Of a stretch of 64,000 nucleotides of DNA, positions 1-14,598 are shown piece by piece. The translations under genes were made by a program, and so were the position numbers. Within the stretch, counting starts at the first letter, position 1; each line of letters starts with the position of its first letter. The DNA is from Drechmeria coniospora (taxonomy: Eukaryota; Ascomycota; Sordariomycetes; Hypocreales; Ophiocordycipitaceae), in NCBI RefSeq assembly GCF_001625195.1, contig NC_054391.1:1798001-1862000 (forward strand). Direction: 5' to 3'. The notes beneath the pieces were generated by a model. It was not told the origin of the DNA, searched no databases, and saw only the letters and a list, made by a program, of their open reading frames with translations.

Positions 1-1
1 C

Positions 2-3000
2 AGTAATAACACTGCTGGTGACGACCTTGCTTACATGATATACACCTCTGGATCCACGGGAGAGCCCAAGGGCGTCATGGTGGAGCACCAAAACATCGCG
101 GCATTCATCCAGTCAAGCATCAGCGCCGCGAGATGTGGATTCGGAAGTCGTATCCTGCAGTTGGCTGCCTTTACATTCGATGCGTCGATTCTCGAATGGG
201 CGACAGCGTTGTGTACAGGCGGCTCGCTGTGCTTTGCTCAATATCCCGAACGTTTGGTGGGCGACTACCTTGCGGACGTGATAGACGAGAACAAGATTTC
301 ATTCTTGCAGATCACCCCGACAGCATTGGAAACCTTACCCGTGTCAAGAAAGGTGCCGACCCTGAGATACATCTCGGTCGGAGGCGAGGCACCGTCACGA
401 GAGACATTCGCAAAGTGGCATTCTCGTGTTGATCTGATCAATGTCTACGGTCCGACCGAGGCAGCTGTGGCCGTGACGTACAACCTGATGGAAAAGGCCA
501 CACCTCTTTCCAAGTTCGTTTCCGCCGGTATCCCCAACCGAGGAACTGGTATTCATATCTGTGATGAAGGCTTCGGTCCCATCCTCGAACAGGGAGTGGG
601 CGAGATCTGCATCTCCGGTGCGCAGGTAGCAAGGGGATACTGCGAGAACCCTACCATCACGGCTCGGAACTTTGCCGTCCACTCCTCCGGTATACGCATG
701 TATCGCACAGGGGACCGCGGCATGTTTCTAGACGATGGCTCGCTGGTGGTTTTGGGACGCATCGATCGAGAGTTGAAAATCCGGGGTTTCCGAATCGCTC
801 CGGAAGAGATTGAAAATGCCATTCTGGAAGCTGGTATCGGCTGTCACGAGGCTTCGGTACAAAAATCAGAAAACGGCCTCGAGATGATTGCGTTTGTCTC
901 TCCCGCGACAATCTCGCCGAGCGAGCTGAGGACGTTGCTGCGGAATTCACTACCAGGCTACAAAGTTCCGTCAAGATTTTACCCTCTCCCCACCCTTCCA
1001 AAGAGTACTACCGGAAAGATTGATCACAAAAAGGTCCGGATGAACCTGTCGAAGCTGACCGAGGAGCACGACTTGGGCGCCTCCCTGTTTCCAGACGATC
1101 ATGCATCGGAGAGAAAGGGGTATACATCTCGGGCGTCGATTCAGGAAACGACGGAGGAAATGGTCCAGAGAATTTGGCAGCAAGTCTTGGGCGCGTCCAA
1201 TTCTTTGCCAAAAGATGTCAACTTCTTCGACGTTGGCGGCCATAGCTTGCTTATGCCCAAGCTCCATGAAGGACTCAAGGCTGCTTTTCCCACAATTTCA
1301 GTGAGGTTGGTGGATCTTTTCCAACACAGCACCATACATTCGCAGACGCTGCTGCTTCAAGGAAACAGTGGCGGTAGGAGTGAGGTTGTCACTCCTTTCG
1401 AAACTGCGCCAGGAAGCAGCACGCATTCGTCACTTAGGGTTTCAACCGTGGCATCGCCGGGCATCGTTACCGGCGCCACCTCGCCAGCGATATTAACACC
1501 ACCGCTAGTGGAAATAGACACCAATCACCACTCAGGGGTTGCCATAGTAGGGCTCGCTGGTCGATTCCCCAAGGCTGCGAATGCAAACGAGTTCTATGAC
1601 AAATTAATGGATGGATACTCTGGCATTACGGACTTTAAGAAGAGAACCGAACCTGAGGCTATACCAGAGGCTATCTGGGTTCCTAGGGCAGGGGTGCTTG
1701 ACAACATCGAGCGCTTTGATAATGATTTCTGGAAGCTGTCCAAAGAAGATGCCACTGATATGGACCCCCAGCATCGCATATTCATGGAAGTGGCTCATGA
1801 AGCTCTTGCGGATGCGGGCATGGAGGCAGCAGACTTGAGACGCGAATGCGTGGGGTTGTTCATCGGCGCGGCAAGCGACAGCTATCACCTTCATACGAAA
1901 TCAGTCATCAAAGATCCATTTCTTTTGCAGACGAAAAGCTCAATGACACCGTCCATCTCAGCTCGGGCAGCGTATCATCTCAACTTGAGTGGTCCAAACG
2001 CCACTGTTCAAACAAGCTGTGCCAGCAGTACTGTTGCGTTTGCCATGGCGTACGATGCCATTCGGCTGGGTCGATGTAATGTTGCTATTGTCGGTGGGGT
2101 TTCTATCCAGCTTTACGAGTAGGTCTCTTCACTGATTACTTCCTTTCTGGATTTATCCTGCGCAGAACAGTCTAACGATAACATAGGGGGGGTTATCTCA
2201 CTCGAAAAGGACACATTTTGTCGACTAGAGGAGAATGTAACCCATTCGATAGTAGAGCTGACGGCCAGGTGCCGTCGGATGCAGTCACAGCTGTTGTATT
2301 GAGGGGGTACACAGCTGCCACGGAGGCCTCGACAGTTTCATATGCCAACGTCATGGCGGCAGCATCTGGGTCCGATGGCGCCATTGACAAGGCTGGATTC
2401 CAGGTTCCCTCCGCACGAGGGCAGGCCGAAGTCATCAAGGCAGCATGGAGGGATGCCAAAGTTCCGTCGCAAGGCCTTCAATATGCGGAGTAAGTCTCGG
2501 ATTCCTCCGATAGAAATTCGATTTTGTACTGACCGAAGCACACAGAATACATGGAAGCGGAACAGTCGTTGGCGATGCCCTGGAGCTGGAGGGTCTCGGT
2601 CTTGCCATGAAGGAGCTGAAGCTAGATGGGACTCGGATCGCAGTAGGCACGGCGAAGGGAAACATTGGCAACACACAGGTAAAACCTCAACCCAGGGTTC
2701 ACAAGGGTTCACAAGGAGATTTTACTAATACATACGACACAGCAATCGTCAGGGTTGGTCTCACTGATTAAGCTTTGCAAATCCATGCAGAATGGGCTTG
2801 TCCCTGCCATTAAAGGCCTCGATGAGGTTCATCCGGCCATTGACGATACCTTGCCGATCGATTTTGCACGTCGCCGAATGCGCCTTCACCCCGGCAATCT
2901 CCTTGCGGTTTCAGCATTAGGTTGGGGAGGCGTCAACTGCCACATTGTCTTGGGCTTTCCAAGAGAGCATCTACTGAAACGATCCACGAAGGTTCTTTCT

Positions 3001-6000
3001 GAATCAAGCTTCAATCACAGGATCCTCGCGGCACCGCGGTTGAAAAAGGCACCCATCCCAGTGAATCACACAGCTGCTTCACAAGTTACATTCGCTTCCG
3101 ACAACTCGAATGATCATCCAGCACCTGCGACGAAGCCTATCTCACTCAAAGAGCGACATGTCAACGAAGTGAAGATTGACAAGGCCGAGCAGATTCAACA
3201 TTCTCGGACGCAAAGTGATGAGAACAAACAGCAGAAATCCGACGTCGAGATGGAACTGAAAAAGCTATGGGCCTCGGTACTTGTAAAGCCAGACACGAGC
3301 ATCAGCTCTTCTGATAGCTTCCTGCAAATTGGAGGTGACTCCATTTCTGCCCTCCGACTGGTTTCCGTGGCTCGTCGGCATAACATTGGCCTCACAGTCG
3401 CCATGGTTTTCCAGCACCCTCAGCTTTCGGAGATGGCTGCACATGCCAAGGTCGTGAAAGACGAAATGTCAGGGATTGTCAGGCCATTCAGTTTGATCTC
3501 AAACAACGAGGTGGACGAGGTGATGAACGAAATTCGTGACCAGTGCGGATTGTGGCCCGAGCAAACCATCGAGGACGCATACCCTTGTACAACATTACAG
3601 GAAGGGCTGATGGCTCTTTCGGTTACTCGACCTGGCTCATACATCTTGAGAAATGTCTTCCGCCTGGCTAGTCACGTCGATGTTTCTCGCTTCAAAGCTG
3701 CCTGGGAAATGACAGTCAAGAAATGCGCCAATCTTCGGACTAGAATTGTGCTTGTTGGGGATCAGCATATTCAGGCCGAGGTCACCGAGGATGTGCTCTG
3801 GAGGTCCGTTCGAACTGCTAACCCTAAAGCATTCCTGAAATCTGATCACAAACTTGTCATGGGCTACGGTACACCCCTCTCTCGTTACACGCTTCTTGAA
3901 GACGAGGGAAGCAATCCCAAACGGTATTTTGTGTGGACGGCCCATCACGCAGTATTTGACGGCTGGACCATGCAAAACATTATCAAAATTTTCACGAGTG
4001 CGTATGAAAGGTCAAGAATACCGAGCATTCGTCCGTTTTCTGCGTTTGTTGATTATACCATGAAACTCAAGGCCGAAGAGTCCAAGGCGTACTGGAAGGA
4101 ACAGCTTTCAGGAGCTCAAAGATCAATTTTCCCATTCGTTGAAGATGAGGCAAAGATTGGGCAAGATACGAAGACAACTACGCAGATATTACAGCTCCAA
4201 CAGAGGTCTCAGAGCTCTATTACGAAAGCCACAATTATCCGGGCCGCATGGGCCATTGTTCTGGCACGCTACAACGAATCTGACGACATTTGCTTTGGCA
4301 CTGTTGTTTCGGGACGACAGGCCCCAGTTGTGGACGTGGAGTCTGTCACCGGTCCCATGATCGCCACCGTCCCAGTCAGAGTTCGTCTGGATAAAGAGCA
4401 AACCGTTGCCAACTTCCTCCACGATGTCCAGGCTCAAGCGTTGAATATGGTTCCATTTGAACAGTTTGGGCTGCAAAACATCGCCAAAGTCAGCGACGAC
4501 GCCAAGAAAGCATGTGAGCTCTCTAACCTGATTGCTGTTCAACCAATGGAACAGATGTCCTCTTTTGACGGAGACTGCAGCGAAGTTTTTGTTCAGACCG
4601 ATGACGATGAATATGATGCCAACGAGATCCTCGAAAGCTACTTCACGTACCCCCTCGTGGCCCAAGCTAAGGTGTTCGAGTCGCACATCAGCTTTGAAGT
4701 TACTCACAAGGTCGATGTTGTATCTGAAGCTCGGATTGTTGCTTTGGGCCATCATATGGAGCACGTCACAGCGCAACTTTTGATGTGCGCCGATTCTTCT
4801 GACGACAAGACGATGCTCCTGGGCGACTTGTCCGTTGCAGGTTCTTGGGATCTCCAGCAGGCTACCGACTTCAATATGATGGAAGACCCTGATTCTGCAG
4901 ATGCCTGTCTCCACGATGTAATTTCGCAGGAGTCGCAAAAAGCCTCATCACGCGAGGCCATTTACACCAAAGACGTTTCCTTTACATATGGCGATCTTGA
5001 CCAGCATTCCACTCGTCTTGCACATGAGCTTGTCCGAGCTGGAGTACAAGGTGAGACTGTGCCTTTCTGTTTCGAAAAATCTGCCTGGGAAATCGTGGCA
5101 ATGCTTGGAATCTTGAAGGCCGGTGCCGCATTTATGCCTCTCGACCCTTCATACCCCGTTCGATACCGGAGCAAACTCATGGCGCAGGTTTCTGCTCGCA
5201 CTGTGCTAGCATCTCCTCAAACTTCGCCGCTATTCCAGTCCGACGCATTCAATGTCATTGTCTTGTCTTCCTCGTCACCCTTCCTCACCAGCACATCCTC
5301 AATCGAACCACAGAAACTACCTCAGTGCACAAAGAACAGTGCTGCTTACGTTTTATTCCCTTCTAAATCAACTGGCAAGCACCGTGGAGTCGTCATTGAG
5401 CACTCTGCGGCATCATCGAGTTTCTTGGCGCTGCAAAAGAAGCTAAACATCGGAACGACAACTCGCCACCTACAGTTCTCGAATTATACTTCTGACACAT
5501 GTATCGGCGAAATTCTTGGGACTTTGGCGTGCGGAGGTACCATTTGTGTACCCTCTGAAGATGACCAGCTGCAAAATCTGGCTGCGTTCATAACGCAAGC
5601 TCGTGTCAACACTGCTGTGCTTACTCCGACAGTTCTTGAGACATTGATTCCGGGGCAAACACCTACTCTCACCCAAATTCTTGTTGTAGGAATGAAACTA
5701 ACAAAGGACATCGTGGATGTCTGGGCTGACAGAGTTTCTCTGATCAGAATATACGGCCCTCCAGAAGCATGCAACGTCGCTACGATGCATGCCTTCAGCT
5801 CTCCTGAAGAAAGCACGTCCATAATTGGACGTGGTGCCAATTCCCTTGCTTGGATAGCCGATATATTACATCCTAGTCGTCTGGCACCTATTGGATGTGT
5901 TGGAGAACTGGTTATTCAAGGGCCTGGCTTGGCACGGGGTTATCTGAATGATGATGAAGGAACAACCCATTCATTCACCGATGCAGTCGACTTTCTGCCG

Positions 6001-8007
6001 CCACAACAGATTTCTAGGACCGCTAAATTCTACAGAACAGGAGATTTGGTGCAATACAATTCGGATGGTGAGCTTGAGTATGTCTCCAGAAAGGCTACCC
6101 AGCGCAAGATTTGCGGTCAACGTTTCGACTTGGGAGACGTAGAGTACCGTGTTCGGGAACTCGGCCAAGGACAAATCAGCAACTTGGCGGCAGAGGTCCT
6201 TCAGCTGCAAGAGGTCGAGTTCCTTGCCGTGTTCATCAACCTAACCGAAGATGAAACTTCAACGCAAGCAACATCAATTCTTCCCAACACTGGGCCACGC
6301 CAGGTCTTTCTCAAGGACCTAGAGCAACGCATTTCGGAGCGCATCCCCAGCTACATGGTACCGTCGTACTGCATCCCAGTCTCCCGCTTACCAAAGTCAG
6401 CCGCTGGGGAAATTGATCGTGCTGCCCTGCGCCAGCTAGCCGAGTCTCTTGCGGCGCAAGATCTTCTTCCCTATTCTGCATCTCGAGGCTCATTATTCCG
6501 AGATTGTTCGAACGATCTCGAAGCAAGGCTCCGCAAGATATGGGCACAAGTGCTAGGCATCCCGACCGAGTCCATCAGTGTCGACGACGACTTTTATCAG
6601 CTCGGCGGTGACTCAATCCGCATCATCACGCTGATGAAGCTCATGAAGAAGCAGTTAGGCATCAGCATAAGTATTTCGACGCTGATTGGTCGAAAAACAA
6701 CCGTCAGTCGCATTGCCGCAATCGTCCAAAGCTCATCATCCATAGCCTCGCCATCAGAGATGCCTCAGATCGACGTCATGTCGAAGCTGTTGGCTATCAC
6801 AGATGAGGCATGGGCGGCAGAAGCAAATTTGGCACGGATTGGGGCAGTCGCCACTCTGTCCGAGAACGCAACCGTTTTCTTGACGGGAGCGACAGGTTTC
6901 CTTGGGACAGAGATTCTTCGGCAGTTGCTTCAGAAGAAACAGATCCGTACAGTGGCGGTCCTCGTCAGGGCAACATCGACTCTTCAAGGATTGCAACGAA
7001 TCAAGCGAACAGCTGTCATCGCGAAATGGTGGAATGATGCATATGAGGAGAAGTTGGAGATTTGGACTGGAGATCTTGGCGCGAAGCAACTCGGCCTTGA
7101 TGGCATATACTGGAATCGACTGGCTGGACAGGCTGGTGACGGCAATATTGATGCTATAATTCATAACGGCGCAGTTGTCAACTGGAACGATGACTACGAA
7201 AAGCTTCAAGCGCCAAACGTTGACTCCACGATCTCTCTGCTGAAGTTGGCCATAGCCTCTCCTGCCAAGCCGAGACTGGTGTACATATCTGGAGGCATCA
7301 AGACAGATCCGCAAGACGATAGAGCCAAAACCAGCAAGAAGTTGGCAGGTACAAACGGATACGCTCAGACAAAGTACGTTTCTGAAGCCGTCATCTCAGA
7401 GATTGCGTCAAGGCTTTCAGCGAGCACTAAACAGCAGCAAAACCGATTCTCAGTCGTCAAGCCCGGGTTAATTATAGGTACCGCCAAAGAGGGAGTAGCT
7501 AACCTTGACGACTTCCTCTGGCGAATAACGGCAGCGGCCGCAGCCATGAAAATATACCCAGAGGAATCCAACAACAGCTGGTTGTACGTGTCAGACTCGA
7601 GCACGCTCAGTCAGAAAATCACACGCCAACTCATTGTCCAAGAAGGGGAGGCGTTTGTGGATCTGTCACTGGGTTTGCCGACCAGCCAGTTTTGGGGGCT
7701 TGTAAATTCGGAACTGGATATTTCTTGCAAGCCAGTACCATGGGAGTCTTGGATACGATCCGCCGAGGAGCAAATGCAAAAAGCTGGTGAACGTCACGTT
7801 CTCTGGCCCGTTCAACATTTCCTTGGCGGTCTTGGATACACTGTCAAGACGTGCTCTCCGGCAGAGGAAGGGTCTGAGCTCCCATTGGCGATTAAGGCAA
7901 ACGTGCGCTACCTAAGGCGTCTTGGATTCATACAACAGCAGTCTCAGGAGCCCACGCAAGTTAAGGGTGATGTCCTACGTCGCTCACATGCGGGTGCAGT
8001 TGCATAA
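2..8007 (+). CDS. Hybrid NRPS-PKS megasynthase, A-T-KS-T-C-A-T-R (5' end outside window)
   Basis: Exons 2-2118, 2187-2489, 2546-2678 and 2743-8007 give 2605 residues in frame; the start is beyond the left edge. Domain order: adenylation A1 (A3 loop near nt 35-75, GKID of A10 near 1015), carrier T1 (GGHSLL near 1236), ketosynthase KS (about 1540-2950), carrier T2 (IGGDS, 3328), condensation C (HHxxxDG at 3943-3963), adenylation A2 (about 4930-6430), carrier T3 (LGGDS, 6601) and a thioester reductase R (TGATGFLG at 6883, YxxxK in GYAQTKY). KS active-site codons are Cys 2018-2020, His 2550-2552 and Asn 2670-2672, where a second His is usual. No AT, KR, DH or ER is visible. A1 motifs are intact. 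A2 is degenerate: PSKSTG in A3, YGPPE in A5, GEIDR in A10. The enzyme should assemble a short peptide-like product and release it reductively. TAS1-type NRPS-KS enzymes are the nearest relatives I know, but their domain order differs. Confidence 0.93.
1540..2950 (+). other. Ketosynthase domain with Cys-His-Asn active site
   Basis: The domain starts at VAIVGLAGRFP and spans three introns (2119-2186, 2490-2545, 2679-2742). Motifs seen: TSCASS (Cys, codon 2018-2020), EIHGSGT (His, 2550-2552), and KGNIGNTQ in place of the canonical KSNIGH, so the second catalytic His is Asn (2670-2672). The splice that follows this Asn preserves the downstream SSGLVSLIK motif, so the Asn is not an artefact of the model. 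The domain is followed by a carrier rather than an acyltransferase. Confidence 0.88.
2119..2186 (+). other. Intron 1 of megasynthase gene
   Basis: Donor GTAGGT, acceptor ACATAG, 68 nt. It removes the in-frame stop at 2120-2122 and restores the GGY...ADG core of the ketosynthase. Introns 2490-2545 (GTAAGT..ACAG) and 2679-2742 (GTAAAA..ACAG) in the same domain have equally clear borders. Confidence 0.85.
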
Positions 8008-8333: not shown

Positions 8334-9341
8334 CTAGGAAACAGTATAGCTCACTCGGCTTGTGCCCTTTGTCCTCGAAATCTTCTTTACGATTGTCGGA
8401 CCGCACTTGTCAGTTGTGTCAACGTGTGTTCCCCCGCAGGGGTACACTTCGGCGCCGACGATACGGACAACGCGGAAGCGGTTCTCTCCAGGCGGCAAAA
8501 GTCTGCGATCTGGAATCAGTCGCTCAAGACCAGCGTTTCGAAAGTCTTCCTCGGTCCAAAAGTCAATCTCAACCGGCATGGCGCGGGCAAGGTACTCGTC
8601 AACCCGACTCTGAATTGGCTCCTTCCACTTGCCTTCGATGCTGCCACGAAACTCGCACGATGCGCTGTCAGGAGAATGAGACGCTTTGAGCTCGTCGAAG
8701 CCCGGGATCTCGTCCTCGAGTAGGCTTCGCACGGCGGAGCCAAGGACGTGGCCTGCGGTGTGCAAACGAGAGTAAAGAAGCCGCTTCTCTTCGTCGACTA
8801 GCTGCTCGACGATAGCACCAGGCTGCATCATCGTCGGTCCGGAGCCAGCAGCGAAGCGGCCTAGATGCAACACCTGGCCATCGTGTACGGCATCCATCCG
8901 CGCCGCCCTGACTTGGAAAAGAGGGTCATGGCCGTCAACTTTGCTGTCGATTGCTGCCATTGTCCCTTCGTCTGATGGCTGGCCACCACCTTGAGGGTGG
9001 AAGATGGTCTCTCTGGTCACGACAACATGATCTTCGTCCGCATTGGCCTGCTTAAAGAGCGCTCGATTGGCTTCTTCGAGCGCCGAGAATGGACAGATGG
9101 ACAGCACCGTCGTTTTGAGCCGCAACAGTTTTGCCGCATGATGAAAGGCGAGGTAGGTCCGAGCCGGGACAGCCATGACTTTGTCGTTTGATATGTGACC
9201 GATATGTCGAATGAAGACGCGATATGGCGCGAAGCTTCTTGCTATTGATCTAAACATGCAAAGTAGGGGGGGCATTGTAGAATGCTGGGGATCACGCCGT
9301 AATCGGAGGACACCGTAATTAATTGCACACGAGTATGTCAC
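8334..9341 (-). CDS. AlaX/AlaRS-type tRNA-editing domain protein
   Basis: This is a single-exon ORF of up to 335 residues. The sequence has the second additional domain architecture of alanyl/threonyl-tRNA synthetases: FHPQGGGQPSD near residue 115, HTAGH (zinc HxxxH) near residue 194, and CGGTH (CxxxH) near residue 302. There is no aminoacylation core, so it is a stand-alone editing factor that should hydrolyse mischarged tRNA, as the AlaX and AARSD1 families do. Three starts are possible: 9341, the ATG at 9257 and the ATG at 9176. The peptide between the second and third starts (MFRSIARSFAPYRV...) is Arg-rich and acid-poor like a mitochondrial presequence, so dual cytosolic and mitochondrial products are plausible. 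It converges with the megasynthase and diverges from the MFS gene at 11078. Housekeeping and cluster-linked self-protection are both possible. Confidence 0.85.
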   Translation of the reverse strand: MTYSCAINYGVLRLRRDPQHSTMPPLLCMFRSIARSFAPYRVFIRHIGHISNDKVMAVPARTYLAFHHAAKLLRLKTTVLSICPFSALEEANRALFKQANADEDHVVVTRETIFHPQGGGQPSDEGTMAAIDSKVDGHDPLFQVRAARMDAVHDGQVLHLGRFAAGSGPTMMQPGAIVEQLVDEEKRLLYSRLHTAGHVLGSAVRSLLEDEIPGFDELKASHSPDSASCEFRGSIEGKWKEPIQSRVDEYLARAMPVEIDFWTEEDFRNAGLERLIPDRRLLPPGENRFRVVRIVGAEVYPCGGTHVDTTDKCGPTIVKKISRTKGTSRVSYTVS

Positions 9342-11077
9342 TTCGCTGTCATCTTATGTGGGTCACACACCCTTGCTTCAGCACGGCTTGGCTTACAGTA
9401 CGTGATGATTCCATCTTCTTCGTTTGAGTTCCGGAAGCAGTCCACGTCAGCACACAAGCATCAACTTCGCTACATTAAACGATATATTAAATGATGTCAC
9501 TCCTTGTTTCACACTTAAAATATCGAGTTTCTATGTCTTGAAAGCCGTACGACTAATTTTCTTCTGAATCACTGACACAGGAAGCAAACCGCTCGATGTT
9601 GGGTTTATGGTACGATGTGAAGGTCCGGCTTCGAAACCACAACCTTTGCATCCCGATAGCGGAATGAAATAGAATTCAATTACAAAATTTCGCTTCCTGA
9701 ATGCGGAGGAATTGACTCTGTACTTGTGAAAGTGCCTTGCGGTGGTGCCTTTCAGCGTCGATAATCCAAGTGATTTCTGGCAGGGCATGCAACTGAAAAT
9801 CGACGCACAAATTCGGAGGCGGGTTCTACCAAACCCTGGAGGCGGAGAATTTTTAAGCAGGGAAATAATTCCAAAGGTAAATTATGTTGTCGCCAACCCA
9901 GCATGGGTCGTAGGTTTCGTTCTATTCGCATGCTCACGAGACAACTGTGACCTTGGGCGCCGTGCCGTGGTCCCCGAAGCCATTGAGACACGCACAGCAT
10001 AATGTCGGAAATGGATTTCCGTCACAAAAATCCCTCTGAATCCGTGAGTGTTATGGATTTTTCCGAATCCGAACGGGCTGGGAGGCCTCGTTCCTCGGTG
10101 CTGAATATTGTAATGATGTACTTGTATGCAATCAAATGCGAGAGGCTGTCTAATTAACAGCGCATTTTCCGACAAGCACCGTCCTGCGGGAGGTTGACAT
10201 GTTCCACGAGCCTCCAAGCAGCCCATGATCCCACCAGCCAACGAACCCCTGTCCACGACTCCGACGGACGGCATCCATGCTTGACAGGAGATGCTGCACA
10301 AAGATCCTCAATTCCGGCCAAATTTGTGGTAGCAACGCAAACTTGGCTCGCAGTCTGGGCAACCTCACATAGAGGTATTGTTTACAGGCTTAGTAGATGT
10401 ATGTGCTTTGAAATTGGATGAGATGCCGCCTAGTCCAAGCCTCAGCAACCTGTGGCCTGCCTGCCTATTCGAACATCTCCTTCTGCGACAATCCAGCATA
10501 TGGCCCGAAGCCGGCTTGTTGGCTTGTATCCCACTCGGCGGCCCGATATTAGTGTGATGTTTCATGCGTCCGCGCCAGCGAATCCAGGATGAGTAGAGTC
10601 ATGTTCTCGTTCAAATTGGTTACATGCTCCTGAACGATTCCTCTCTTGCGGGCAATTATTTCTGCTCTCGATCTATGAAAAAAAGAGGAATTATTTAGTC
10701 ACAGGGATGGGACAATCTGCACCATGATTCGGCCACGAGAATAAGACTTCCAATGATGCGACAGAAATGAGAAGCAAGTGCTGGGAAGAATTCCCGCCAG
10801 AGGTTAATGACGTCGCCCTGATAATTGTTTTAGTGCAAAGCTAACAGTTAGTTTGTCCACTATTATTCATTATAAATGCTTATGAATTCAGCATGCGCCA
10901 TGATTCGTAAAACAGCGTAAACAAAAGAGTAAATGTGGGAGGAAACCATGTGCATTGAAATACCCTTACCGCCCACTTCCCAGGGATAGTGCGTCATTCT
11001 CATTAATTTCGTCAGTGAGAAGGCATGAATCGACGCTCGAAAAGTCCTTAAGGTCAGTGGACAGAACCAGCCTCATC
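9342..11077. other. Intergenic, divergent promoter region
   Basis: This 1.7-kb AT-rich stretch lies between the divergently transcribed tRNA-editing gene and the MFS gene, so it should hold both promoters. Short ORFs occur on both strands, but none shows a recognisable motif or a splice-extended frame. Confidence 0.6.
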
Positions 11078-12737
11078 ATGGACTCGGACAAGGAAACGGG
11101 CATTCAGCAGACTTCGCCTCTGAGAGACAGGCGGCAAGTTCGAGATGGAAATGGCGCCGACGGAGAAGATGGACAAAAGGGAAAGGTCAAATGGGTCTCG
11201 GAGTCGCTCTCACTTCCACGGGAAGCGTTGTTCGTTACCGTTGTCTGCATGGCACAGTTCTGCACGCGCAAGTTGACTGACTGCATTGCCCCCATTGCGC
11301 GCCGAACCGGCAACTAACGGGACTTTCTTTCCAATAGAGGCATCTTTCATGGGCACATTGGTACTCTTGCGCACCGTCGGAAGAAGCTTTCACGTTACGA
11401 GTCCGCCACAACTTGCCTGGCTCGTCGCCGGCTACTCCCTGACCGTTGGAACCTTTATCCTCTTCTCCGGCCGACTTGGCGACGTTTTCGGCCACAAGAG
11501 GATGCTTCTCACCGGCTTCTCCTGGTTTTCTCTCTGGTCCCTCGTCGCCGGCCTGAGCGTGTACTCGAACTACAAGCTCGCCGTCTTCTCTCGCGTTCTC
11601 CAGGGCATTGGCCCAGCAATCTGTCTCCCCAACGCGCTCGCCATCCTTGGCACAGCGTATCCGCCAGGTCACCGGAAAGCGATGGTCTTTGCCTTCTTCG
11701 GTGCCGTCGCTCCCATCGGTGCCATTTTCGGCGGCATCTTTGCCTCACTACTGACCCTGGCCTGGTGGCCGTGGGCGCTATGGGCGATGTCCATCTGGCT
11801 TGCCTTGCTGGCCGGAGCTGGTAACGTTGCGATCCCTTCACTGCCGAAAACGTCGAGCCCTCGGCAAGATTGGGCGTCTTGGATCACTTTGTTGGATCTG
11901 CCCGGCGCATTTGTCGGTGTTGTTTCCCTCGTTCTCTTCAACTTTGCGTGGACTCAGGCACCGATTGACGACTGGGGAACGCCAACCGTTCTCGCTCCCC
12001 TCGTTCTTGGCATCGTCCTGTTTGCTCTGTTTCTCGTTATCGAGATGAGGTGGAGCCCGATGCCACTGCTTCCCTTCGATGCCATCAACGCAGACGTCGC
12101 TTTTGTCTTGGCAACTGTAGGCTGTGGATGGGCCACATTTGGAGTCTGGACTCTGTACCTCGTTCAGATCATGCAAGAAATCCATCAACTGTCACCACTG
12201 ATCACGACTGTCTGGTTCTGCCCTGTCGCCGTTGCCGGGGCCGCCGCCGCCGTCTGTACGGGCAAGCTTCTTGGCCCTTGGCAGATGAAGCCAGCGCTTG
12301 TCATGACGCTCGCCATGGCCGCTTTCACCACAGGCTCCATTATCACGGCCCTGGCGCCGACGGATCAGATATACTGGGGACAAATCTTCATCTCCATGGT
12401 CATCATGCCATTTGGTATGGACATGAGCTTTCCGGCCGCGACACTGATCCTATCCAACGACGTATCCAAGGAGCACCAGGGGATCGGGGCGAGCCTCGTC
12501 AATACGGTCGTCAACTACGGCATCGCCTTGGGTGTCGGCTTCGCGGGCACCGTCGAGGTGCAAGTGAACGGAAAGGGCGAGTTGGTGGAAGAGAAAATTC
12601 GCGGTTTCAAGGGCGCCCTGTACATGGGCGTCGGCCTTGCCAGCCTCGGCCTGGCTGTGAGTCTGGTGTTTCTAGCAAGAGAGCTTTTCAAACCGACGCG
12701 GCCGAATGGCTCTCTGCGACCGGCTGTACCAGCATGA
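11078..12737 (+). CDS. MFS multidrug transporter, DHA2 / ATR1-like
   Basis: Exons 11078-11267 and 11338-12737 give 529 residues. The hydrophilic N-terminus of about 47 residues is followed by FCTQASFMG across the splice and then many hydrophobic helices, in line with the 14-helix DHA2 drug:H+ antiporters. GRLGDVFGHKR matches the conserved MFS loop motif after helix 2, and GASLVNTVVNYGIALGVGFAGTVE-like sequence near the C-terminus is characteristic of the ATR1 branch (aminotriazole and boron efflux in yeast). The intron has a GC donor (GCAAGT) with branch CTAAC and acceptor AATAG; only this splice joins the two frames. The start is the first ATG followed by a continuous frame into helix 1. As a plasma-membrane exporter near the megasynthase it is a candidate product pump, but its substrate is unknown. 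Confidence 0.9.
11268..11337 (+). other. GC-AG intron
   Basis: Donor GCAAGT and acceptor CAATAG, 70 nt, with CAACTAAC as a likely branch site. Joining C at 11267 to AG at 11338 makes a Gln codon and keeps the transporter frame. No GT donor nearby gives the same junction. Confidence 0.75.
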
Positions 12738-14052
12738 ATGGATTTAAAGGCTTGCCTTTCTGGTGGTTTGCGTTTTGTCAAAGTTGTCCCGCCCTTGTCT
12801 TGGTATTGAGAGTGGGCGTGATTCTCCCGTGTCCCTGATCGACTCTAAGGCACAGCCGATGCGGCCACTGGGAACATCAAGCGGCCGCTCAGGCTTCGTC
12901 TTCAAGCGGTCTGCAGGGTCCTTACGCATAGAGTACGAGTTGAATGTCCTGGTTTCCGTGGGGCCTTGTCTATGCGGCAAGCGAATGTCGGGTGGCGTTT
13001 CCGTTTGGCCAGCGATTGACACCATTTCATGGTTAGTGAGTCGTCACAGCAGCTTCAGGCACCACAGGAGCGAGAACGAATGATTCTAGAAGCAATTAAG
13101 TTGCTCCATCTGCAGCATCAACCATGATGGGAGCCAAATGCAGCATGCCTTTTTGGCCAAGCGGTAACGTAGCAGCCGGTTAGGCACTTGATCAGGTTGT
13201 ATACGGCACGACTTGCCAAAATCCAGCGGTTGCATGAACACAAATGATACTGCAATACACCCGTCATGTTATTATTCGGCAAGCGAGAGAGCCGTAGCAA
13301 GTCGTTGGAGCATTCACGCTTTCCATGGTCTCATTCTACAATGGCGGTACCAAGTATGAGCCGCTGCAGCTTGTCATATTACTACGTTGACGGCGACCAT
13401 GGGCGAGAGACGACTCGGCGTGTCATTCTGTCCCAACATTGTCCACCTCAAACTCGCACCATAAGAGAGTGCAGGCATGAGTTCTGTCGCCAGAAATAAT
13501 GTATCCGCCTTGGGATGGGGATCATGACGCAAGCTGGAGTCGGCCAACTCAAATGAAGAGGGCCGAGCATCAAAGCGTACTCGTCTGTGAATTCACTCTC
13601 GTGTGTGTTGAACAGTGGACAGGCCACCGAGGGGAACCCTGTGTCCATGCACCACTTGCAAGGTTGCGACGGCGTCCAGTTTCTCGAGACTGGAACTTGC
13701 ATTGCTTCCGGTCGTCGTCTGTGCACTGCAGCTGATCTCTGCAACAATGACTTCTTCTGGCCTGTCGGTGCGGATGATCTCCACTCCATTATTGCCTTGG
13801 CCGCCGCGAGTAATGGAAAGGAATACCTCATGCTATCGAAATGGATTTGAAGCCTCGGCAGCTCGTGTCTCAAAAAGAATCCCCTCTCGCGAGGGAGGAC
13901 ATGGTCGGACTTGTATAAGAAGCCCATTGGTGCCAGCCTCCAGGCCCAATTTCCAACCATCTCCAGAGTAGCAAATCTCAGCAAACATCCCTCCTCGCAG
14001 CTTACAACACGAAATAAAGAACAATACGATTCTTCGACACCTTTCAGTCGTC
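12738..14052. other. Intergenic, no supported gene
   Basis: Overlapping short frames on both strands (longest 178 codons, minus, 13448-13984) lack recognisable motifs. The right part should be the promoter of the HsbA gene that starts at 14053. Confidence 0.55.
13914..13920 (+). promoter_or_regulatory. TATA-like box of HsbA gene
   Basis: TATAAGA lies about 139 nt upstream of the HsbA start codon. The distance allows the 5' UTR usual for such genes. The call rests on position and sequence only. Confidence 0.45.
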
Positions 14053-14598
14053 ATGAAGTTGTCCCAGGTCGCCATCCTTTGCCTCGCCACTGGCGCCTAC
14101 GCCAGTGCCGCTGTCGAGGAGCGCGATGTTAGCACCGTCGTTGGCATCCTGACGCAGGTCCAAAATGGCATCGACAGTCTCGACGCTTCCATCAAAGTCT
14201 TCACCAGCAACTCGGTCCCTACCGTCAAGGCTAAATCCGTCAGTCTTGTGGCAACGATCAAAGCCGGAATAAGCACGGTGAAAGGCTCATCGGCGTTGAC
14301 CCTTTACGACACGATAGCCCTCTTCAACCCGGTCAACGAACTAAAGGCCCATGCTCAGACTCTCGCCAATGATCTCAAGGCTAAGCGATCGGCCCTTAGG
14401 GCGGCCAACCAGTGTGACGAGACTCGCCAGCAGATTGCCGACATCAAAGGTGCCAGCCAAGCACTTATCACGGCCATCGTGGCCAAAGTGCCCGCCGACG
14501 GCAAAGCCGTTGCCCAATCTCAGGCAAACGGGATCACAGATGTTCTCAGCCAAGCCCAGGCCAACTTTTCCGGCAGCCAATGCCAGAATCCGGCATAG
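14053..14598 (+). CDS. HsbA-family secreted hydrophobic-surface-binding protein
   Basis: The 181-residue intronless protein opens with a signal peptide (MKLSQVAILCLATGAYASA). The mature part is about 160 residues of amphipathic helices rich in Ala, Ser, Val and Lys, with two cysteines, one at about residue 123 and one near the C-terminus. Length, helical pattern and Cys placement fit the HsbA family (HsbA of Aspergillus adsorbs to hydrophobic surfaces and recruits lytic enzymes; related proteins are found in fungal cell walls). It lies between two drug-efflux genes and need not belong to the metabolite cluster. A larger paralogue lies at 60074-61045. Confidence 0.85.
   Translation: MKLSQVAILCLATGAYASAAVEERDVSTVVGILTQVQNGIDSLDASIKVFTSNSVPTVKAKSVSLVATIKAGISTVKGSSALTLYDTIALFNPVNELKAHAQTLANDLKAKRSALRAANQCDETRQQIADIKGASQALITAIVAKVPADGKAVAQSQANGITDVLSQAQANFSGSQCQNPA

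What the first reader, a model, noticed from the sequence alone, without database searches (positions are those of the whole stretch)
1540..2950. Ketosynthase with a Cys-His-Asn active site inside an NRPS
The second catalytic His of condensing ketosynthases (NIGH motif) reads Asn (KGNIGNTQ), while Cys and the first His are intact, and no acyltransferase accompanies the domain. As I recall, the KS of tenuazonic acid synthetase TAS1 also uses Cys-His-Asn and catalyses ring closure instead of decarboxylative condensation. Here, however, the KS sits in the middle of the chain (A-T-KS-T-C-A-T-R) instead of at the end, so it would transfer or cyclise an intermediate in mid-assembly. I know of no described fungal enzyme with this order.
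Basis: partly seen in the sequence, partly recalled or inferred. Interest (0 to 1): 0.85.

Follow-up and report, generated by a model that had tools for sequence, protein, structure and literature searches.

The report
TAS1-type ketosynthase inside peptide synthetase
A nematode-killing fungus carries a giant enzyme in which the ring-closing unit known from the end of the tenuazonic acid synthetase sits in the middle of a peptide assembly line, where it probably passes the growing chain on instead of releasing it.

Summary
The gene starts 2,080 bases upstream of the window and encodes 3,204 aa with the order C-A-T-KS-T-C-A-T-R; the first C lies outside the window. The KS has Cys1272-His1408-Asn1448. 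The Asn is no splice artefact: 45 of 45 family rows and TAS1 keep it, and a paralogue encodes it without an intron there. The KS tree puts it in a fungal C-A-T-KS family with TAS1, apart from 15 bacterial-type and 4 own PKS KS domains. The second half is the terminal T-C-A-T-R block of a peptaibol-type synthetase. Conoideocrella luteorostrata has the same layout (its gene model lacks part of C1); both halves give the pair as sisters, so one fusion explains them. In the closest KS-free relative, a fragment, an A domain stands where the KS is. I infer that the KS takes the N-acyl-aminoacyl chain from T1 and hands it to T2 without extension. TAS1-like release, and extension with malonate loaded in trans, are not excluded; Cys-His-Asn alone does not rule out decarboxylative condensation. 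A2 looks degenerate here. Product unknown. Genome: Drechmeria coniospora, whose paper counts three NRPS-PKS hybrids. New variant of a known kind.

The parts
1..8007 (+). Part of the gene inside the window (C3:1795921-1806007 in all; ATG at L009:5921, 2,080 bases upstream of the window; 8 exons; 3,204 aa)
   Evidence: identical to P0002
2..1039 (+). First adenylation domain A1 (C-terminal part; starts upstream of the window), motifs intact
   Evidence: Pfam; motif alignment
1136..1354 (+). First carrier T1 (VGGHSLL)
   Evidence: Pfam PP-binding, 3 stretches
1532..2967 (+). Ketosynthase of TAS1 type, exon parts 1532-2118, 2187-2489, 2546-2678, 2743-2967
2018..2020 (+). Active-site Cys1272 (TSCASS)
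2119..2186 (+). Intron in KS
   Evidence: GT-AG
2490..2545 (+). Intron in KS
   Evidence: GT-AG
2550..2552 (+). Active-site His1408 (IHGSGT)
2670..2672 (+). Asn1448 in place of the second His (KGNIGNTQ)
2679..2742 (+). Intron just after the NIGN motif
   Evidence: GT-AG; absent from paralogue L005
3250..3462 (+). Second carrier T2 (IGGDSISAL), of peptaibol-synthetase type
3565..4842 (+). Second condensation domain C2 (HHAVFDG)
4900..6462 (+). Second adenylation domain A2, open frame but degenerate motifs
6505..6717 (+). Third carrier T3 (LGGDSIRI)
6835..7962 (+). Thioester reductase R (TGATGFLG, YxxxK intact)
   Evidence: Pfam PF07993, TIGR01746, motifs, PDB

Best explanation
It is a fusion of a TAS1-type synthetase (C-A-T-KS) to the terminal T-C-A-T-R block of a peptaibol-type synthetase. 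C1 acylates the amino acid that A1 loads on T1. The KS takes the N-acyl-aminoacyl chain on Cys1272 and passes it to T2 without adding an extender, as a non-elongating relay. C2 joins it to an amino acid on T3, and R releases the product as an aldehyde or alcohol. Shown by sequence: the architecture, the triad, the kinship of both halves, the shared architecture in a second genus, the uneven conservation. Inferred: substrates, the relay step, the product. In this strain A2 is probably inactive, so T3 may be loaded by another A domain; that is also inference.
For: KS in one clade with TAS1, sister to the Conoideocrella KS at 100/100; Cys and Asn 45 of 45, His 44 of 45 with one gap. The C-A-T-R halves of the same two proteins are sisters too, next to KS-free fragment P0235, which carries an A domain directly before the corresponding T. 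T2 is 43-51% identical to the carriers of three peptaibol-type proteins (P0231, P0235, P0244) and matches the two T-TE sisters compared (P0057, P0122) only over 29-30 residues; no domain of the protein would load an extender on it. Invariant-column changes outside A2 in the second half are 17 of 207 in the window protein and 21 of 207 in P0055, so T2, C2, T3 and R are under constraint, which fits chain flow through T2. A carrier follows the KS in 28 of 44 rows by regular expression, window included. Precedent for a mid-line KS with a changed triad acting as a transacylase: HtmA1 KS3 (PMC8456789, passages).
Against: TAS1, the only characterised relative that I found, releases its product at this KS (PMC4640141). 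The relay has no obvious gain over direct transfer from T1 to C2. The bacterial precedent has Cys-Asn-His, not Cys-His-Asn. A2 looks inactive here (21 of 118 invariant columns changed), so chain completion at T3 is unsure. The first half is not evenly conserved: C1 differs at 27 of 108 and the KS at 34 of 203 family-invariant columns, A1 at 8 of 158; KS against A1 is p 0.0005, the lowest p in that direction of 20 rows. This fits new roles but also relaxed constraint. No expression data were seen.
Confidence: 0.5

Rival explanations
1. The KS works exactly as in TAS1: it closes a tetramate ring by Dieckmann cyclisation of an N-(beta-ketoacyl)-aminoacyl thioester and releases it, and the T-C-A-T-R half is idle or makes a second product.
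For: Kinship and triad with TAS1; TAS1 KS shown to cyclise (PMC4640141; review PMC7698770); A2 decay in this strain.
Against: T2, C2, T3 and R keep their motifs and are about as conserved as in Conoideocrella; an idle half should decay as a whole, not in A2 alone. The layout is kept in two genera at 52% identity.
Confidence: 0.2
2. The KS extends the chain by decarboxylative condensation with malonate placed on T2 by an acyltransferase in trans, giving a statine-like beta-keto-gamma-amino unit.
For: Cys-His-Asn is also the triad of type III PKSs (PMC4640141) and, as I recall, of KASIII, which condense decarboxylatively. Two of the genome's AT matches lie in open frames of 533 and 376 aa (L015, L020) that may be free-standing.
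Against: No AT in the protein; of 12 AT matches scored in the genome one is on this contig, about 1.7 Mb away; T2 is of NRPS carrier type; the KS is not near extender KS domains.
Confidence: 0.15
3. The gene is decaying or the KS is a non-functional spacer, with T1 handing the chain directly to C2.
For: A2 motifs degenerate; KS (34 of 203) and C1 (27 of 108) more changed than A1 (8 of 158) at invariant columns.
Against: 3,204-aa frame open through 8 exons with standard splice sites; catalytic motifs of C1, A1, T1, KS, T2, C2, T3 and R kept.
Confidence: 0.15

Closest known systems
TAS1, tenuazonic acid synthetase of Pyricularia oryzae (C-A-PCP-KS)
   Same: First half has the same domain order; KS has Cys-His-Asn and no AT; best single-domain PDB match and same clade.
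   Different: TAS1 (1,602 aa) ends with the KS; here T-C-A-T-R follows. The TAS1 KS branch is long and outside the 45-row family.
Uncharacterised C-A-T-KS-T-TE fungal proteins (Hirsutella, Beauveria, Neonectria, Ilyonectria, Drechmeria P0122)
   Same: 48-53% identity to the C-A-T-KS part, KS 55-63%, same Asn.
   Different: They end in a carrier of another type (GLDS and variants) plus alpha/beta hydrolase, not in T-C-A-T-R.
Conoideocrella luteorostrata QQS21_011414 (P0055)
   Same: Same layout, 52% identity over 2,991 aligned positions, sister in both trees.
   Different: A2 motifs intact; the gene model lacks part of C1; uncharacterised.
Peptaibol-type synthetases with terminal R (Trichoderma, Cladobotryum lcsA-named; own 12,226-aa frame at C2:4742968)
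   Same: T-C-A-T-R block 40-47% identical in six compared; T-R part 46% to the own paralogue.
   Different: No KS in their Pfam lists.
Non-elongating KS0 of bacterial trans-AT PKSs, e.g. HtmA1 KS3
   Same: Mid-line KS with altered triad that passes the chain to the next carrier (PMC8456789, passages).
   Different: Cys-Asn-His, bacterial, different KS lineage.

Membership tests
TAS1-type synthetase family | C-A-T-KS order with no AT, KR or other PKS domain beside the KS | tested here: met
TAS1-type synthetase family | KS with Cys-His-Asn | tested here: met
   45 of 45 rows with Cys and Asn, His 44 of 45 (one gap)
TAS1-type synthetase family | KS in one clade with TAS1, apart from other KS domains | tested here: met
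   100/100; 15 bacterial-type KS chosen by me and 4 own PKS KS outside; TAS1 has a long branch
TAS1-type synthetase family | KS is the last domain and releases the product | tested here: not met
   T-C-A-T-R follows; so it is a fused relative, not a TAS1
TAS1-type synthetase family | Dieckmann cyclisation of acetoacetyl-aminoacyl thioester | not testable with these tools
   needs biochemistry
Non-elongating KS0 (trans-AT PKS) | Member of the bacterial trans-AT KS lineage | tested here: not met
   the rows taken as bacterial include trans-AT-like proteins (e.g. PksN-type), not a full KS0 set
Non-elongating KS0 (trans-AT PKS) | Cys kept, one triad His lost, carrier downstream | tested here: met
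   a different His is lost than in HtmA1 KS3
Trans-AT extender KS | AT supplied in trans near the gene | tested here: not met
   AT elsewhere in the genome not excluded
Peptaibol-type terminal module | T-C-A-T-R block kin to peptaibol synthetases | tested here: met
   the name peptaibol rests on database labels (lcsA, Trichoderma NRPS) and on PMC4792172 for drechmerins
Peptaibol-type terminal module | Active terminal adenylation domain | tested here: inconclusive
   motifs degenerate here, intact in P0055; activity unknown

The most novel reading that the evidence does not exclude
TAS1-type Cys-His-Asn ketosynthases are not mainly ring-closing terminators but chain-forwarding stations of fungal NRPS lines: more than half of the relatives listed carry a carrier behind the KS, and in this lineage the KS stands in the place of an adenylation domain and feeds a peptaibol-type module, a new way to join assembly lines.
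Probability: 0.35. Interest if true: 0.75.

Novelty: new variant of a known kind. Interest (0 to 1): 0.55.

Why it matters
TAS1 is the known case of a ketosynthase that only closes a ring. Finding the same domain type in mid-chain, with constrained carriers behind it, makes it testable whether this KS type can also forward a chain. A natural junction between a TAS1-type unit and an NRPS block would be a guide for building hybrid synthetases, and predicts acyl-peptide aldehydes or alcohols instead of tetramates from such genes.

Tried and rejected
A splice variant that restores His: rejected. Ordinary extender KS: rejected by tree and triad. Decay of A2 supported by P0001, a near-identical 2,814-aa protein on another contig (probably another strain), which lacks three stretches (residues 1718-1760, 2220-2549, 2755-2772): not used as evidence, because each stretch has a length divisible by three and can be read as GT-AG in our DNA, so it looks like a gene-model difference; the DNA of that record was not seen. 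A nearby trans AT: not found. Literature for a described C-A-T-KS-T-C-A-T-R enzyme: not found; the library lacks most subscription journals. Searches were searched for precedents. Papers looked at by passages only and set aside: PMC10979478 (coralinone, bacterial, KS with AT and TE), PMC8403587 (names only TAS1 and SwnK layouts for fungal NRPS-PKS), PMC6854747 (Aspergillus hybrids, TAS1 not mentioned), PMC11942696 (says that BBA_04327 of Beauveria bassiana resembles TAS1, no product), PMC12352038 (Conoideocrella genome, this gene not discussed in the passages), PMC4859500 (the other D. coniospora genome, the word hybrid does not occur). The regular expression for carriers misses variants (P0150 looks like a carrier by eye) and some short gene models may be cut, so the architecture counts are rough. 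The protein searches listed 120 of 1,229, 2,229 and 601 proteins and limit candidates by length, so more members may exist. Structure prediction was not run: the KS spans introns and the full protein is too long.

Full report
What is there. The window begins inside a gene. Upstream DNA of the same contig (L009) supplies the start. Eight exons with GT-AG introns give 3,204 aa, identical to the database protein P0002. Pfam finds two condensation, two adenylation, three carrier, one ketosynthase and one reductase domain.

The organism. The contig lengths of G000 (12,542,233, 10,204,147 and 9,751,215 bases) fit the three chromosomes of Drechmeria coniospora ARSEF 6962 (12.5, 10.2, 9.8 Mb; PMC4792172, passages), and P0122, labelled Drechmeria coniospora, lies on a contig of 10,204,147 bases. 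That paper counts 11 NRPSs, 8 PKSs and 3 NRPS-PKS hybrids (section on secondary metabolism read in full); the passages and section seen do not discuss this KS. Its supplement was not seen. The other genome paper (PMC4859500, passages) lists 10 NRPS and 7 PKS genes and no hybrid class.

The triad. Cys1272, His1408 and Asn1448 align with the catalytic residues of other KS domains. In the alignment, Cys and Asn are present in 45 of 45 rows of the fungal family and His in 44 of 45 (the missing one is a gap in P0145). Two of the 45 rows, P0122 and own_L005, are one gene. TAS1 (6kog) has Cys-His-Asn too. Three own PKS KS domains in the same alignment have the second His (L001, L002, L004); L003, not in that alignment, shows GH in the printed match. 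Rows dropped before the tree: P0149 and P0153 (partial KS), and P0001 and P0002 (the window's own gene and its near-identical copy).

The tree. With 65 rows (45 family rows, TAS1, 15 bacterial-type KS that I chose out of the hits, several without a named source, and 4 own PKS KS) the family plus TAS1 is one side of a branch at 100/100, and the family alone at 100/99. The window KS and P0055 of Conoideocrella are sisters at 100/100. TAS1 and the own PKS rows have long branches, so the exact place of TAS1 is less sure than its separation from the ordinary KS domains.

What follows the KS in the family. By regular expression on the tails of 43 database rows, 11 have a carrier and an alpha/beta hydrolase, 15 a carrier only, 16 neither, and 1 (P0055) has T-C-A-T-R; the window is a second T-C-A-T-R, so 28 of 44 have a carrier behind the KS. 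The count is rough, because some gene models are short and one more carrier (P0150) is visible by eye. So the TAS1 layout, with the KS last, is one of four.

The second half. Its best relatives are fungal NRPSs, many with a terminal reductase, with Trichoderma and Cladobotryum proteins labelled NRPS or lcsA among them (120 of 601 listed). In the own genome the best other match to the T-R part is in a frame of 12,226 aa at C2:4742968, 46%, probably the drechmerin (peptaibiotic) synthetase of PMC4792172; that assignment is inference. In a quick tree of 67 C-A-T-R blocks (66 of 120 candidates aligned over the whole length, P0055 among them, plus the window; SH-aLRT only), window and P0055 are sisters at 100, with P0235 next at 100. 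P0235 is a fragment that starts inside an A domain directly before the T (printed). Thus one fusion that put C-A-T-KS in the place of an adenylation domain and what lay before it explains both proteins.

Constraint. In columns invariant among six outgroups, the window protein differs at 1 of 15 (T2), 3 of 67 (C2), 21 of 118 (A2), 4 of 19 (T3) and 9 of 106 (R); P0055 differs at 3, 4, 10, 3 and 11. A2 against the rest is 21 of 118 against 17 of 207 in the window (Fisher p 0.012), and 10 of 118 against 21 of 207 in P0055 (p 0.70); A2 of the window against A2 of P0055 is p 0.053. The A2 ATP loop and the lysine motif at its end are not conserved in the window protein and are intact in P0055. In the first half, against nine outgroups, the window differs at 27 of 108 (C1), 8 of 158 (A1), 4 of 29 (T1) and 34 of 203 (KS); P0055 at 42 of 79 (C1, from an incomplete gene model), 11 of 158, 4 of 29 and 23 of 203. 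KS against A1 is p 0.0005 in the window and 0.20 in P0055. Among 20 rows so tested the window has the lowest p towards KS; two rows (P0060, P0096) have no A1 change and one or two KS changes, and one row (P0131) is skewed the other way at p 0.002. Thirteen KS columns are changed in both window and P0055, seven of them to the same residue; two of these (1362, 1381) are changed in none of the 18 other rows. This fits a changed KS role since the fusion, or relaxed constraint; the data do not decide.

Mechanism. TAS1 KS cyclises N-acetoacetyl-isoleucine to tenuazonic acid and is needed for activity; its authors report the Cys-His-Asn triad, shared with type III PKSs (PMC4640141, passages). A review by the same group says that His322 abstracts a proton and that the KS is monomeric (PMC7698770, passages), and cites an altered KS in FR901464 biosynthesis that only transfers the chain. 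In hangtaimycin synthase a KS with Cys-Asn-His acts as a transacylase, and its Cys-to-Ala mutant abolishes production (PMC8456789, passages). Here the KS must fill T2 if T2 and C2 are used, and their conservation suggests that they are. Nothing in the protein loads T2 otherwise, and T2 is of NRPS type. A relay is therefore the simplest reading. Ring closure at the KS would end the chain and leave the constrained second half without work. Extension by malonate needs an acyltransferase; of 12 AT matches scored in the genome only one is on this contig, about 1.7 Mb away, though two AT frames elsewhere (L015, L020) may be free-standing.

Novelty. The KS is a member of the TAS1 KS family; the enzyme is not a TAS1, because the KS is not terminal. 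I found no description of the whole order in the searches named above. The case is a new variant of a known kind, with a clear experiment to follow.

Noticed in passing
L005 (G000:C2:4202895 on) and P0122: A second TAS1-type gene in the same genome, C-A-T-KS-T-TE, 1,729 aa, Asn kept (NIGNAQ).
   Followed up: partly
window 4900-6462: The second adenylation domain has an open frame but degenerate ATP-loop and terminal lysine motifs, unlike the Conoideocrella copy; the domains around it are not degenerate.
   Followed up: partly
Family rows P0052, P0056-P0058, P0060, P0091, P0096, P0099, P0122, P0123, P0144: Eleven C-A-T-KS-T-TE proteins with a GxSxGG hydrolase motif in Hypocreales; no product found in the searches made.
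   Followed up: partly
KS family, G-x-GG loop, window protein residue 1511: 42 of 45 family rows have Trp there; TAS1 has Tyr, and the two own PKS rows with that loop aligned have Ile and Tyr.
   Followed up: no
L009:2-3389 (-) and window 11277-12737 (+): A PDR-type ABC transporter upstream and an MFS transporter downstream of the gene; a tRNA_SAD protein at 8334-9353 (-) lies between gene and MFS.
   Followed up: no
window 13972-14598 (+): HsbA family surface-binding protein.
   Followed up: no
G000:C2:4742968-4744380: End of a 12,226-aa open frame with terminal reductase, probably the drechmerin peptaibiotic synthetase.
   Followed up: no
P0001 against P0002: A near-identical protein on another contig lacks three stretches that look like falsely called introns in a coding exon.
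   Followed up: partly
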